From a virus: a stretch of DNA of 64,000 bases. The notes beneath the pieces were generated by a model. The model was not told where the DNA came from. It ran no database searches and worked only from the letters and a program-made list of their open reading frames with translations. This document shows positions 3,165-11,499 of this stretch, one piece after another (within the stretch, counting starts at the first letter, position 1; each line of letters opens with the position of its first letter). Both the position numbers and the translations under genes were made by a program. The stretch is taken from the IMG/VR virus record IMGVR_UViG_3300024520_004699, positions 1 through 64,000 of that record. One strand, given 5' to 3'.

Positions 3165-3240
3165 GCCTCTATAGCTCAATGGCAGAGCAGCGTCCTTGTA
3201 AGGCGCAGGTTGTCGGTTCGATTCCGTACTAGGGGCTCCA
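3165..3240 (+). tRNA. tRNA-Thr (anticodon TGT), CCA encoded
   Basis: Folds as a cloverleaf. The acceptor GCCTCTA (3165-3171) pairs with TAGGGGC (3230-3236), the D stem is GCTC/GAGC, and the anticodon stem GCGTC/GGCGC holds loop CTTGTAA (anticodon TGT at 3197-3199). The T loop is TTCGATT and the 3' end TCCA. It would read ACA threonine codons. The T stem is irregular: only three C/G pairs form next to the loop, and two outer pairs need a one-base bulge on the 3' strand. It may be functional with reduced stability, or degenerating. Confidence 0.85.
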
Positions 3241-7840: not shown

Positions 7841-7886
7841 ACGAGAGCCATAGAAGCCGAGGGTGCCATTCCCTGCGAGCGATCTT
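7841..7886 (+). repeat. Mini-array: one A/B repeat unit
   Basis: In the gap before the TOPRIM gene. A partial B repeat ends in GAGCCA (7845-7850). It is followed by 8 bases, A repeat GAGGGTGCCA (7859-7868), 8 more bases, and the 5' part of B, GAGCGA (7877-7882). Span from GAGCCA to GAGCGA is 38 bp, i.e. one 36-bp unit plus 2, the same rule as the two large arrays at 10040 and 11310. The A variant is identical to one copy in array 1. Confidence 0.75.
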
Positions 7887-8859: not shown

Positions 8860-8892
8860 GGTCGGGGCCCTTCGGGGTCTCGGCCTTTTTTT
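8860..8892 (+). terminator. Rho-independent terminator
   Basis: An 11-pair stem (8860-8870 with 8875-8885, three G-U) capped by TTCG and followed directly by seven Ts. It ends the small-gene/TOPRIM operon just before the next promoter. Confidence 0.9.
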
Positions 8893-8920
8893 GTTGCGTA
8901 ACTCGTCGTTACAATATAGT
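8891..8920 (+). promoter_or_regulatory. Rightward promoter of the IS110-like/array operon
   Basis: TTGTTG (8891-8896), an 18-base spacer and TATAGT (8915-8920) directly after the terminator. Operator site 3 fills the spacer. Transcription would enter the structured leader and the IS110-like gene, then run through the arrays. Confidence 0.6.
8898..8912. promoter_or_regulatory. Repressor operator, site 3 (GTAAC-N5-GTTAC)
   Basis: GTAAC-TCGTC-GTTAC, the 15-bp core shared by all four sites. It lies between the -35 and -10 of the promoter for the IS110-like gene, so that operon is probably under the same phage repressor as the early genes. Confidence 0.72.
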
Positions 8921-8953
8921 CTTTGAACTGTGTCGCCTATCCGGTTGGATCTC

Positions 8954-9099
8954 CTGCCGGGTGGCAGCGCCAGAGAGGCCCGGTTCCCAGCCCCCCAGCA
9001 CCCGGGCCTCTCCCCGGTGTCACTCCAGTTGGTGCACCACGGGGCCAGAGCGAGCCGTATCTCGCGTCGCTGTCTTCGCCGATGCGAGGCTCTGGCCCC
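8954..9099 (+). ncRNA. Structured leader RNA upstream of the IS110-like gene (candidate)
   Basis: No ORF with a start signal. Hairpins: CTGCC-GGGT-GGCAG (8954-8967); a perfect 11-bp stem GAGAGGCCCGG/CCGGGCCTCTC (8973-8983 with 9002-9012, 18-base loop); palindrome TGGTGCACCA (9030-9039); and a long hairpin with outer stem GGGGCCAGAGC/GCTCTGGCCCC (9041-9051 with 9089-9099), a 9-base one-sided bulge, and inner stem 9061-9069 with 9080-9088. The bulge region carries GAGCGAGCCG (9048-9057), 9/10 identical to array repeat B, exactly 8 bases after an A-like GCACCA end. IS110 bridge RNAs also lie beside their recombinase gene and have guide-bearing internal loops; function here is inferred. Confidence 0.6.
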
Positions 9100-9135
9100 A
9101 CTCATAATGATGAACAAATAACAAGGATTGAGCCC

Positions 9136-10041
9136 ATGTATGAAAAATTGAAACTAACCGAGGATCTGAAAAAAGCCTCACTCGGCCTGAGCCGTGAAGA
9201 GGCGAGATTTCTCGTCGACGCCTACTACCAGCTGCAGGATGCAAGGATTCGGGCGGCTGGACAAATCCGAGCAGTTCTAGACGAAACTCCCGGCATCCTT
9301 AGCTGGGTGCAACTTTATGTCGAGAACATCGAAGACGAAATCAAGAAGGCCCTCACAATGTATGCCTCCGGACACCCTGTCTGTGAGTGGGCCCAGACAG
9401 TGAAGGGCATTGGCCCAGTTTTGAGCGCGGGCTTGGTCGCCCACATCGATATCACCAAGTGTCCAACTGTCGGCCACATCTGGTCCTTCGCTGGGGTTAA
9501 CCCCGAACAGGAATGGGGCAAGGGACAGAAGCGCCCCTACAACGCTGACCTCAAAGTGCTGCAATGGAAGATCGGCGAGAGCTTCGTCCGGTCGGGCGGC
9601 GGCGGGATTTACAACGACGTTTATAAAACGCGCAAAGAGCAGGAGATCGCACGCAATCTGAATGGAGATTTTGCCGATCAGGCGAAGGCCAAGTTGAAGA
9701 AGTTCAACATCGGCAAGAACACAGATGCGTATAAATGGTATGCAGGTCGGATCACCCGCAAAGAGGCGGAGCGCGTTCTCAAGCTGGCGGCTGCCGACAA
9801 GGTGGTGAAGCCCAAGCTGGTGAAGGAAGGGAAGGGCCAGCCCATGCTGCCCCCGGCCCATATCCATTCCCGGGCCAAGCGTTATGCCGTCAAGCTGTTT
9901 ATGAGCCACTGGCATTTCGTAGCGTATTTTAACCACTACGGAAAGCGTCCGCCGAAGCCATACATCCTCGAACATGGCCATGGTCACGTTCATGAAATAT
10001 TGCCTCCGAACTTCGATGTGAAAAGCAAGAAGGCAGCATAG
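9136..10041 (+). CDS. IS110-like (Transposase_20-domain) protein
   Basis: 301 residues. Residues 91-123 carry GIGPVLSAGLVAHIDI followed by WSFAGVNP, the helix-hairpin-helix and 'AG..P' pattern of the C-terminal domain of IS110/IS116/IS902 transposases. KRPYNADLKVLQWKIGESF (132-150) and the C-terminal helix near 245-270 fit the rest of that domain. Ser153 in VRSGGGG is a possible nucleophile, unproven. The N-terminal DEDD RuvC-like domain of true IS110 enzymes is missing; a 90-residue helical region takes its place. No insertion-sequence ends are visible, so it is probably a resident phage protein. ATG at 9136 has AAGGATTGAG upstream. The stop codon is overlapped by the first repeat of array 1. 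Confidence 0.72.
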   Translation: MYEKLKLTEDLKKASLGLSREEARFLVDAYYQLQDARIRAAGQIRAVLDETPGILSWVQLYVENIEDEIKKALTMYASGHPVCEWAQTVKGIGPVLSAGLVAHIDITKCPTVGHIWSFAGVNPEQEWGKGQKRPYNADLKVLQWKIGESFVRSGGGGIYNDVYKTRKEQEIARNLNGDFADQAKAKLKKFNIGKNTDAYKWYAGRITRKEAERVLKLAAADKVVKPKLVKEGKGQPMLPPAHIHSRAKRYAVKLFMSHWHFVAYFNHYGKRPPKPYILEHGHGHVHEILPPNFDVKSKKAA

Positions 10042-10985
10042 TCGAGCCAATTTGAAAGAGAGCACCAACGGACGCGAGCGAGCCACACCTACCGAGAGCA
10101 CCAGAACCCGCGAGCGAGCCATTACTTGTGAGAGCACCACAAACCCGGAGCGAGCCATCCAATGCGAGAGTACCAGACGAACCGAGCGAGCCACGGCCTT
10201 TGAGGGTGCCACATTATTGGAGCGAGCCACACCACTTGAGAGCACCATGTCCTGAGAGCGAGCCATCACGTCGGAGAGCACCATTTGGGGTGAGCGAGCC
10301 AACTCCTCGGAGAGCGCCAGAGAATTTGAGCGAGCCATTGAAGCCGAAAGCACCATGCAGATAGAGCGAGTCAAGAACCGAGAAAGCGCCATTCCATGTG
10401 AGCGAGCCAAGCTTTTCGAGAGCACCAACAGTCGGGAGCGAGTCAAGTCGAACGAGAGTGCCACGCCTATTGAGCGAGCCAACACATAAGAGAGCACCAT
10501 CCATTGTGAGCGAGCCACCAGTTCGGAGAGTACCAGAAAATGAGAGCGAGCCACCCGAGACGAGAGCACCACAACCCCCGAGCGAGCCACGCGAGTCGAG
10601 AGCACCAATATCTAGGAGCGAGCCATGGCCCTTGAGAGCACCATAACAGAAGAGCGAGCCATACGATGAGAGAGTGCCAAAGCTCATGAGCAAGCCATCC
10701 AGTTGGAGAGCACCAACGTAGCTGAGCGAGCCATCGCATCAGAGAGTACCAAAAAGTGTGAGCGAGCCATCAACTATGAGAGTACCAATTTCAGGGAGCG
10801 AGCCACACATGATGAGAGCGCCACAATGGAGGAGCGAGCCATTTGTTCTGAGAGTACCATCAAAGGTGAGCGAGCCAGACTGCCGGAGAGCACCATTCGG
10901 GACGAGCGAGCCACCAGACCAGAGAGTGCCATTCATGAGGAGCGAGCCAACATCACGGAGAGTACCAAACAATGAGAGCGAATAA
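10040..10985 (+). repeat. Array 1: alternating A/B repeats with 8-bp spacers, 26 units
   Basis: From 10058 to 10967 there are 26 A repeats (GAGAGYRCCA) and 25 complete B repeats (GAGCGAGCCA) in strict alternation. Each is followed by exactly 8 variable bases; the 18-bp step holds for 900 bp with no indel. All 51 spacers between 10068 and 10975 are different. The array opens with a partial B (CGAGCCA) overlapping the stop codon of the IS110-like gene and closes with GAGCGA. No frame on either strand is open across the whole array, so it is not a coding repeat. It is not a CRISPR: repeats and spacers are far too short and two repeats alternate. Repeats are direct, not palindromic. Confidence 0.97.
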
Positions 10986-11499
10986 AAAAAACGAGAATGC
11001 CGGGCTTGTGCGCAGCTATGTTTATGGGCGGGCTGTAGTGATTGGGATGAAGAAAGAGGACGGCATTATAAGGCAGGAGGGTCCGTGGAGATACGAGGAT
11101 ACTGGAGAGGAGCGCAGCTCCAAGAAGGTAGATTGGCCCTGCCCGAAGTGCGGCCTCCTGCCCACAGTGGATGGGGAGGATCCATGCATAGCAAAACTCC
11201 CGGGAGTGACGGCTGCATGCTGTGGACACGGCGTCATGAAGGGATACGTAGCGTTTGATAGTGGGATAGTTATTCGCGGTGAATTTGATCATATAAAAGA
11301 GGAAACGGGGGGAGAGCCAGCCCGACGGAGAGTACCAAACAATGAGAGCGAGCCAAAGCGACGAAGAGCACCAGATCAGATGAGCGAGCCAGCGCACAAG
11401 AGAGTACCAAAGCCCATGAGCGAGCCAGAGGATGAGAGGGTACCAAACAAGAAGAGCGAGCCACCAACTACGAGAGCACCAAACAATGAGAGCGGCTGA
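10972..11499 (+). CDS. Cys-rich phage protein with array-encoded C-terminal tail
   Basis: 175 residues. ATG lies in the last spacer of array 1; GGAGAG of the last A repeat (nine bases upstream) serves as ribosome site. The body has PCPKCGLLPTVDGEDPCIAK and ACCGHGVMKGYV, a probable zinc-binding fold known in hypothetical phage proteins. From about 11310 the frame runs into array 2, giving 12-residue repeats of the form (V/A)P-xxx-SEP-xxx. The natural protein probably once ended near 11310, so the tail looks acquired. Function unknown. Confidence 0.65.
   Translation: MRANKKNENAGLVRSYVYGRAVVIGMKKEDGIIRQEGPWRYEDTGEERSSKKVDWPCPKCGLLPTVDGEDPCIAKLPGVTAACCGHGVMKGYVAFDSGIVIRGEFDHIKEETGGEPARRRVPNNESEPKRRRAPDQMSEPAHKRVPKPMSEPEDERVPNKKSEPPTTRAPNNESG
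11310..11499 (+). repeat. Array 2: A/B repeats with 8-bp spacers, 5 units
   Basis: A repeats at 11328, 11364, 11400, 11436 and 11472; complete B repeats at 11346, 11382, 11418 and 11454; all 18 bp apart. It opens with partial B GGGAGAGCCA and closes with GAGCGG at 11490, a span of 182 bp from GAGCCA (5 x 36 + 2). First and last spacers after A are both AACAATGA, identical to the last spacer of array 1. It overlaps the 3' end of the Cys-rich gene and supplies the start codon of the next gene. Confidence 0.95.

What the first reader, a model, noticed from the sequence alone, without database searches (positions are those of the whole stretch)
10040..10985. Undescribed dual-repeat array with 8-bp spacers beside an IS110-like gene
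Two different 10-bp repeats (A GAGAGYRCCA, B GAGCGAGCCA) alternate 26 times, each followed by exactly 8 variable bases. The 18-bp step is kept for more than 900 bp without an indel. All 51 spacers are distinct while repeats are nearly constant, the hallmark of an element whose spacers carry information. It is not a CRISPR, an iteron set, a coding repeat or a known integron. The neighbouring protein resembles RNA-guided IS110 recombinases, which use two short guide segments per RNA; a 36-bp A-8-B-8 unit also carries two 8-base segments. Guide function is inference; a multi-site protein-binding array is the main alternative.
Basis: partly seen in the sequence, partly recalled or inferred. Interest (0 to 1): 0.96.

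Follow-up and report, generated by a model that had tools for sequence, protein, structure and literature searches.

The report
Phage TIGR-TasA RNA-guide array
A virus of bacteria carries 32 tiny two-part guide RNA units next to a guide-binding protein; this is a member of the TIGR-Tas systems described in 2025, and comparing about 1,500 such units suggests that each pair of guide pieces copies one contiguous 16-base stretch of somebody's protein-coding DNA.

Summary
The array is real. Array 1 is 26 uninterrupted 36-bp units (10045-10980): AGCCA-N8-GAGAGYRCCA-N8-GAGCG. Its 52 spacers are all distinct.

It is not undescribed. It is a TIGR array (Tandem Interspaced Guide RNA; Faure et al. 2025) beside a solo Nop-domain TasA (9136-10041). 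TasA matches solved TasR (E 3e-18) and TasH by sequence and fold, and it lacks a nuclease or recombinase domain.

Comparative tests in related phages support RNA guides over a protein-binding array:
- Array ends stop exactly at the middle of the edge repeat.
- Bases pair between consecutive edge repeats (p = 5e-32) far more strongly than within one copy.
- Where homologous array ends diverge, flanks are 78-81% identical, repeats 91-97%, and spacers 27-39% (chance 25%).

One result goes beyond the paper. Among 1,048 spacer pairs, spacer A followed by the reverse complement of spacer B reads like contiguous, in-frame natural coding DNA (z about 4-5). Three other arrangements and pairs taken across the edge repeat do not. 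The effect repeats, more weakly, in 479 new units (z 2.4). Targets remain unidentified: none in this genome or, above chance, in array-bearing relatives.

The parts
9136..10041 (+). tasA: solo Nop-domain TIGR-associated protein, 301 aa, with an insertion of about 30 aa near residues 205-236 relative to most relatives
   Evidence: PHROG 4285 3.6e-43; Pfam Transposase_20 4.3e-5; PDB 9mty TasR 2.9e-18 and 21kl TasH 8.8e-9; model pLDDT 87, VIA Z 17-18 to TasH/TasR; insertion from pairwise alignments
10045..10980 (+). TIGR array 1: 26 tigRNA units of 36 bp, AGCCA-N8-GAGAGYRCCA-N8-GAGCG; edge repeat GAGCGAGCCA, loop repeat GAGAGYRCCA
11315..11494 (+). TIGR array 2: 5 units with the same repeats, lying in the 3' end of ORF 10972-11499; first and last units repeat spacer AACAATGA of array 1's last unit
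7846..7881 (+). solo tigRNA-like unit (AGCCA tagaagcc GAGGGTGCCA ttccctgc GAGCG) in the gap before the topoisomerase-like gene
   Evidence: in the 64 non-duplicate contigs scanned, 34 hits with up to 3 mismatches lie outside called arrays of 3 or more repeats (some are short runs or sit by masked arrays) against 0 in the reversed-sequence control
10042..10049 (+). 5' half edge (TC GAGCCA) directly after the tasA stop codon (TAG, 10039-10041)
   Evidence: the first partial edges of 70 arrays keep only AGCCA
10976..10980 (+). 3' half edge GAGCG that ends array 1
   Evidence: the last partial edges of 66 arrays keep only GAGCG
10972..11499 (+). ORF between and through the arrays; its ATG lies in the last spacer of array 1, with the loop repeat's GAGAG 9 nt upstream as a possible ribosome site; its last ~60 codons are array 2 read in frame
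   Evidence: ribosome-site role inferred
8915..9135 (+). strongly structured leader upstream of tasA (z -5.3), after a terminator at 8860-8885

Best explanation
This is a TIGR-TasA system of a tailed phage. The arrays would be transcribed with the neighbouring genes and cut in the middle of each edge repeat (GAGCG^AGCCA) into 36-nt tigRNAs. A TasA dimer would hold one tigRNA: the half edges pair with each other at positions 3-8 and 4-7, and the loop repeat holds the other end. Spacer A would pair with one DNA strand and spacer B with the other, over one contiguous 16-bp target of the form A + reverse complement of B. TasA has no nuclease, so the expected outcome is RNA-guided binding and bending that blocks transcription or replication of the target, most likely genes of a competing mobile element or of the host. 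Shown here: anatomy, protein family and fold, unit boundaries, pairing, spacer turnover, and the A.rcB coding-DNA imprint. Inferred from the published TasA/TasR/TasH work: transcription, processing, DNA binding. Inferred with less support: the silencing role and the identity of targets.
For: Published family features match. TasA hits TasR 2.9e-18 and TasH 8.8e-9; with a 48-member profile TasR 2.5e-24, TasH 1.9e-14, IS621 only 1e-4. Fold: Z 17.1-18.2 to TasH and TasR, 12.4-12.8 to IS110 recombinases; the TasR alignment begins at its residue 111, so the RuvC domain is absent here. 65 of 76 phage records with these repeats encode a TasA relative; of 80 loci fetched by protein alone, generic 36-bp arrays were called in 58, with several other repeat pairs. 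Half edges at array ends fix the boundary at GAGCG|AGCCA. Edge position 7 of one repeat covaries with position 4 of the next (TA 21, TG 16, CA 3, CG 1141; p = 5e-32), far more than within a copy (p 0.04) or the reverse control (p 3e-4); clade-wide, edge pair 3x8 is G-C 223, A-T 107, T-A 99 of 479. Homologous array ends: flank 0.78-0.81, half edge 0.96-0.97, loop 0.91-0.92, spacers 0.27-0.39. Junction and codon-phase tests select only A.rcB: Markov z 3.7-4.2, coding mixture z 4.5-5.0, phase alone z 3.8-4.5. Replicated in 479 new units, z 2.4, p <= 0.01.
Against: No expression data. No target was found: self matches (0 exact, 0 with one mismatch, 9 with two, at gap 0) do not exceed chance, and matches in 2.7 Mb held (relatives plus loci fetched with three of the spacer pairs) are near chance apart from loci fetched by design. 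The coding imprint is about 38% of what random phage coding 16-mers give, so part of the spacers may be decayed, non-coding or from genomes with other codon usage. One control set (cross-edge pairs, gap 1) gave z 3.4 among some 32 tests with few shuffles, unexplained. TasA biochemistry beyond RNA binding is not published in the paper read here.
Confidence: 0.93

Rival explanations
1. A multi-site DNA-protein binding array (centromere-, iteron- or packaging-like): a protein binds the two repeats and the spacers are neutral filler.
For: Exact 18-bp spacing and constant repeats suit such an array; published TasA loci are occasionally linked to ParB-like genes.
Against: Compensatory changes link half repeats of neighbouring edge copies, which makes sense in RNA, not in one DNA site. 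Array ends are cut at mid-edge. Spacers turn over faster than flanking genes and carry a natural-DNA imprint across A and rc(B). No ParB domain was found in this genome, and in only 5 of 42 records searched.
Confidence: 0.03
2. An IS110-like mobile element with a bridge RNA; the array is a series of bridge-like guides for recombination.
For: Pfam Transposase_20 and fold similarity to IS621 (Z 12.7).
Against: No DEDD domain; TasR and TasH are much closer by sequence and fold. IS110 bridge RNAs are single two-loop units, not arrays (PMC12045711).
Confidence: 0.02
3. A TIGR-TasA system whose spacers regulate the phage's own genes rather than foreign DNA.
For: Arrays sit among phage genes, often directly after a stop codon (41 of 70 first half edges hold one); nuclease-free TasA would be safe on its own genome.
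Against: Own-genome matches of A.rc(B) do not exceed chance: 0 exact, 0 with one mismatch, 9 with two against 13.0 in shuffles at gap 0. Spacers are not conserved between related phages.
Confidence: 0.06
4. The A8-B8 covariation reflects a structural constraint inside the RNP at the middle of the target, not natural target sequence.
For: A8 and B8 are the spacer positions closest to each other across the target junction.
Against: The codon-phase signal remains when the junction is removed by a 3-nt gap (z 3.8-4.5) and involves whole spacers; single spacers already carry the dinucleotide signature of genomes (r 0.86).
Confidence: 0.1

Closest known systems
TIGR-TasA, dual-repeat type (Faure et al. 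2025, PMC12045711)
   Same: Two alternating short repeats, short spacers, 36-bp unit, half edge repeats at both ends, solo Nop-domain protein next to the array, phage genome.
   Different: 26 units in one run (5-15 is usual in the paper) plus a second array and a solo unit; spacers of 8 rather than 9 nt; edge and loop box pairs often differ from each other in this clade, whereas the paper says they almost always covary; no ParB partner found.
TIGR-TasH of Salicola phage CGphi29 (SpTIGR)
   Same: 8+8-nt spacers (paper); solved TasH chains align with Z about 18 over 218-222 residues, 21% identity.
   Different: TasH carries an HNH nuclease; none here.
TIGR-TasR (TaTasR, PDB 9mty)
   Same: Closest solved sequence; CCA box C at repeat ends; A/B tandem targeting rule agrees with the spacer imprint here.
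   Different: RuvC nuclease domain absent here; box D is GAG-type instead of UG.
IS110/IS621 bridge-RNA recombinases
   Same: Shared RNA-binding fold (Z 12.4-12.8).
   Different: No DEDD domain, no single bridge RNA; arrays instead.

Membership tests
TIGR-Tas (dual repeat) | Array of two alternating 8-12-nt repeats with short (8-12 nt) variable spacers | tested here: met
   10-nt repeats, 8-nt spacers, 26+5+1 units
TIGR-Tas (dual repeat) | Adjacent Nop-domain Tas protein homologous to known Tas proteins | tested here: met
   PDB 9mty 2.9e-18, 21kl 8.8e-9; fold Z 17-18
TIGR-Tas (dual repeat) | Array begins and ends with truncated edge repeats | tested here: met
   AGCCA / GAGCG halves in 70 starts and 66 ends
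TIGR-Tas (dual repeat) | Edge-repeat base pairs supported by covariation | tested here: met
TIGR-Tas (dual repeat) | Box motifs covary between edge and loop repeats | tested here: inconclusive
   Same here (GAG/CCA in both) but often different elsewhere in the clade, e.g. edge GATCGAGACA with loop GAGAGAACCA
TIGR-Tas (dual repeat) | Predicted rho-independent terminator after the array | tested here: inconclusive
   None called right after array 1 or 2; a gene starts in the last spacer instead
TIGR-Tas (dual repeat) | Processing to 36-nt tigRNA bound by Tas | not testable with these tools
   Needs RNA; unit length of exactly 36 and end anatomy agree
TasA subtype | No HNH or RuvC nuclease domain | tested here: met
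   Only Transposase_20 found in this protein; TasR alignment starts at its residue 111
IS110 transposons | DEDD catalytic domain plus single bridge RNA | tested here: not met
   Alignment to 8wt6 starts at its residue 125; no DEDD Pfam hit
CRISPR-Cas | 25-36-nt single repeat and cas genes | tested here: not met
   Repeats are 10 nt and of two kinds

The most novel reading that the evidence does not exclude
TIGR-TasA arrays of environmental phages store pairs of 8-mers taken from, or selected to match, contiguous 16-bp sites in protein-coding DNA of other genomes. Spacers are replaced with little left in common between related phages, so the array is a dynamic, nuclease-free RNA-guided silencing weapon with a spacer-renewal process not yet known.
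Probability: 0.55. Interest if true: 0.88.

Novelty: new member of a known kind. Interest (0 to 1): 0.6.

Why it matters
The 2025 paper leaves open what natural TIGR spacers match, how arrays change and what nuclease-free TasA does. This phage clade supplies more than 1,500 dual-spacer units in alignable relatives. In them the spacers turn over almost completely while repeats and flanks stay, and the spacer pairs bear the imprint of contiguous in-frame coding DNA in exactly the A.rc(B) geometry measured for TasR. That makes the target question directly testable: look for 16-mers, gap 0, in coding DNA of co-occurring hosts and phages.

Tried and rejected
Coding repeat: rejected; stops at shuffled frequency in the repeat frame. 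Structured RNA array: array 1 is less structured than shuffles (z +2.4), and Rfam finds only a tRNA. Targets: searched A.rc(B), rc(B).A, A.B and B.A with gaps 0-3 in 2.5 Mb of array-bearing phages, gap 0 in 2.7 Mb, and three recurrent spacer pairs in IMG/VR. Hits scatter as chance would; one group lies in terminase-like genes on a conserved PQGLWMPG motif and is probably coincidence (gene name by eye). Host: the exact repeat pattern occurs in only two bacterial MAGs, probably as phage contigs, so the host is unknown. ParB partner: none found here. Isolated phages: only one distant TasA relative, in Microcystis phage Mvi-JY20.

Full report
What is there. The window is 64,000 bases of a 65,274-base virus record with phage terminase and portal genes. 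Between 10045 and 10980 lie 26 unbroken 36-bp units, AGCCA-N8-GAGAGYRCCA-N8-GAGCG; all 52 spacers differ. A second array of 5 units lies at 11315-11494 and a solo unit at 7846-7881. Spacer AACAATGA ends array 1, occurs in the first unit of array 2 and ends it again; the ATG of the gene after each array lies inside it. This suggests that a duplication or insertion split one array around the gene at 10972-11499 (inference).

The protein. ORF 9136-10041 encodes 301 aa. It matches phrog_4285 (3.6e-43) and, weakly, Pfam Transposase_20. Against the PDB the best matches are TasR 9mty (2.9e-18) and TasH 21kl (8.8e-9); a profile of 48 relatives gives 2.5e-24 and 1.9e-14, while IS621 follows at 1e-4. 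The AlphaFold2 model (mean pLDDT 87) aligns to TasH and TasR with Z 17.1-18.2 and to IS110 recombinases with Z 12.4-12.8; the aligned part of TasR starts at residue 111, so the nuclease domain is missing. This is a solo Nop-domain Tas protein, TasA.

Literature. TIGR-Tas was described in 2025 (PMC12045711). Its arrays have alternating 8-12-nt repeats with about 9-nt spacers (16 nt in total in one case), truncated edge repeats at both ends, 36-nt tigRNAs, and pairing of spacer A with one strand and spacer B with the other. The paper states that natural targets, spacer origin and TasA function are unknown.

Co-occurrence. The exact repeat pattern was found in 96 stretches of IMG/VR. Of the 76 records they come from, 65 encode a TasA relative; most of the rest are short fragments. 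In the other direction, a search by protein alone gave 80 loci (525 relatives or more exist); most show a 36-bp repeat period and generic arrays were called in 58, with several other repeat pairs such as GATCGAGACA/GAGAGAACCA and GAACGAGTCA/GAGAGAACCA.

Unit boundaries and pairing. In 70 array starts only the 3' half of the edge repeat (AGCCA) is conserved, in 66 array ends only the 5' half (GAGCG). Solo units outside called arrays have the same limits. In 1,183 unique units, edge position 7 covaries with position 4 of the next edge (p = 5e-32), against p = 0.04 within one copy and 3e-4 in the reverse pairing. In 479 units from other loci the edge pair 3x8 is G-C 223, A-T 107 or T-A 99, and edges with 4x7 C-G, T-A and A-T occur (these units were selected for a Watson-Crick 4x7 pair). 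This matches a tigRNA whose two half edges pair with each other, and not a DNA binding site. Unlike the published statement for TIGR arrays in general, edge and loop often differ at position 3 in this clade.

Spacer evolution. Two phages that are 95% identical over 5.8 kb share 5 of 13 and 16 units exactly, in the same order, with changed units in the middle rather than at one end. Across diverged pairs with homologous array ends, flanks are 0.78-0.81 identical, half edges 0.96-0.97, loops 0.91-0.92 and spacers 0.27-0.39 (chance 0.25); the pairs are not all independent of each other. A solo unit in two related phages keeps flanks and loop but not spacers. Near-identical phages share nearly all units, so turnover is not visible at that scale.

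What the spacers are. Single spacers carry the dinucleotide signature of the phage genomes (r 0.86-0.87; TA 0.76), though they are less G+C-rich (0.49 against 0.58). The last base of A and the complement of the last base of B behave as neighbours in natural DNA (r 0.80, chi-square 30 with 9 df; the top cell of the 8x8 table); the other three arrangements do not. With shuffles of B within each contig, the Markov score of A.rc(B) has z 3.7-4.2, the other arrangements below 1. A six-frame codon model gives z 4.5-5.0 at gap 0 and z 3.8-4.5 with the junction removed, while gaps 1 and 2 give none; both halves of the contigs show it (z 2.7, 3.3), and pairs taken across the edge repeat do not. In 479 new units z is 2.4, p <= 0.01. 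Random phage coding 16-mers give about 2.6 times the signal, so the effect is partial. One cross-edge control in the new set (gap 1, z 3.4) is unexplained. I read this as: many spacer pairs correspond to one contiguous 16-bp site in coding DNA, in the geometry measured for TasR. Whether by capture or by selection is unknown.

Targets. Own-genome matches do not exceed chance (0 exact or one-mismatch at gap 0; 9 with two mismatches, 13.0 expected), and matches in relatives are near chance. Scans of IMG/VR for three recurrent pairs were uninformative. The host is unknown.

Mechanism. Co-transcription with flanking genes is suggested: 79 of 111 upstream and 75 of 113 downstream neighbours are on the array's strand by a crude gene call, and 41 of 70 first half edges hold a stop codon. 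I expect processing to 36-nt guides, TasA-bound, that bind 16-bp coding sites and block the target, as the paper proposes for TasA. Steps after the array anatomy are inferred.

Verdict. A new, large member of a known kind; the added value is the evidence on spacer turnover and on the coding-DNA imprint, which makes the open target question testable.

Noticed in passing
window 8915-9135: Leader upstream of tasA folds far better than shuffles (-105 kcal/mol, z -5.3), with two long G+C-rich hairpins, one containing a GAGCGAGCCG edge-like word; possible regulatory RNA.
   Followed up: partly
window 10972-11499: The ORF between the arrays reads through array 2, adding about 60 residues of RVPNNESEP-like repeats; probably chance absence of stops.
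   Followed up: partly
related loci, e.g. G007, G002, G010, G074: Solo or very short tigRNA units lie outside called arrays; they may be missed by array finders.
   Followed up: partly
L081 (G069) and L060 (G052): Upstream arrays are open in frame into tasA, giving apparent N-terminal extensions made of EST/ERA repeats.
   Followed up: no
alignment A1: Two TasA relatives have a weak HNH_3 match, and several carry insertions (one with a Cys-rich stretch) in the Nop domain.
   Followed up: no
1,048 unique spacer pairs of the related phage contigs: Spacer A reads as the non-coding strand slightly more often (weight 0.39 for sense, 2dlogL 7.2).
   Followed up: no
cross-edge pairs of L278-L357: Gap-1 codon-phase signal z 3.4 in a control set of 257, unexplained, perhaps chance among about 32 tests.
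   Followed up: no
window 3165-3240: tRNA-Thr (TGT) gene in the phage.
   Followed up: no
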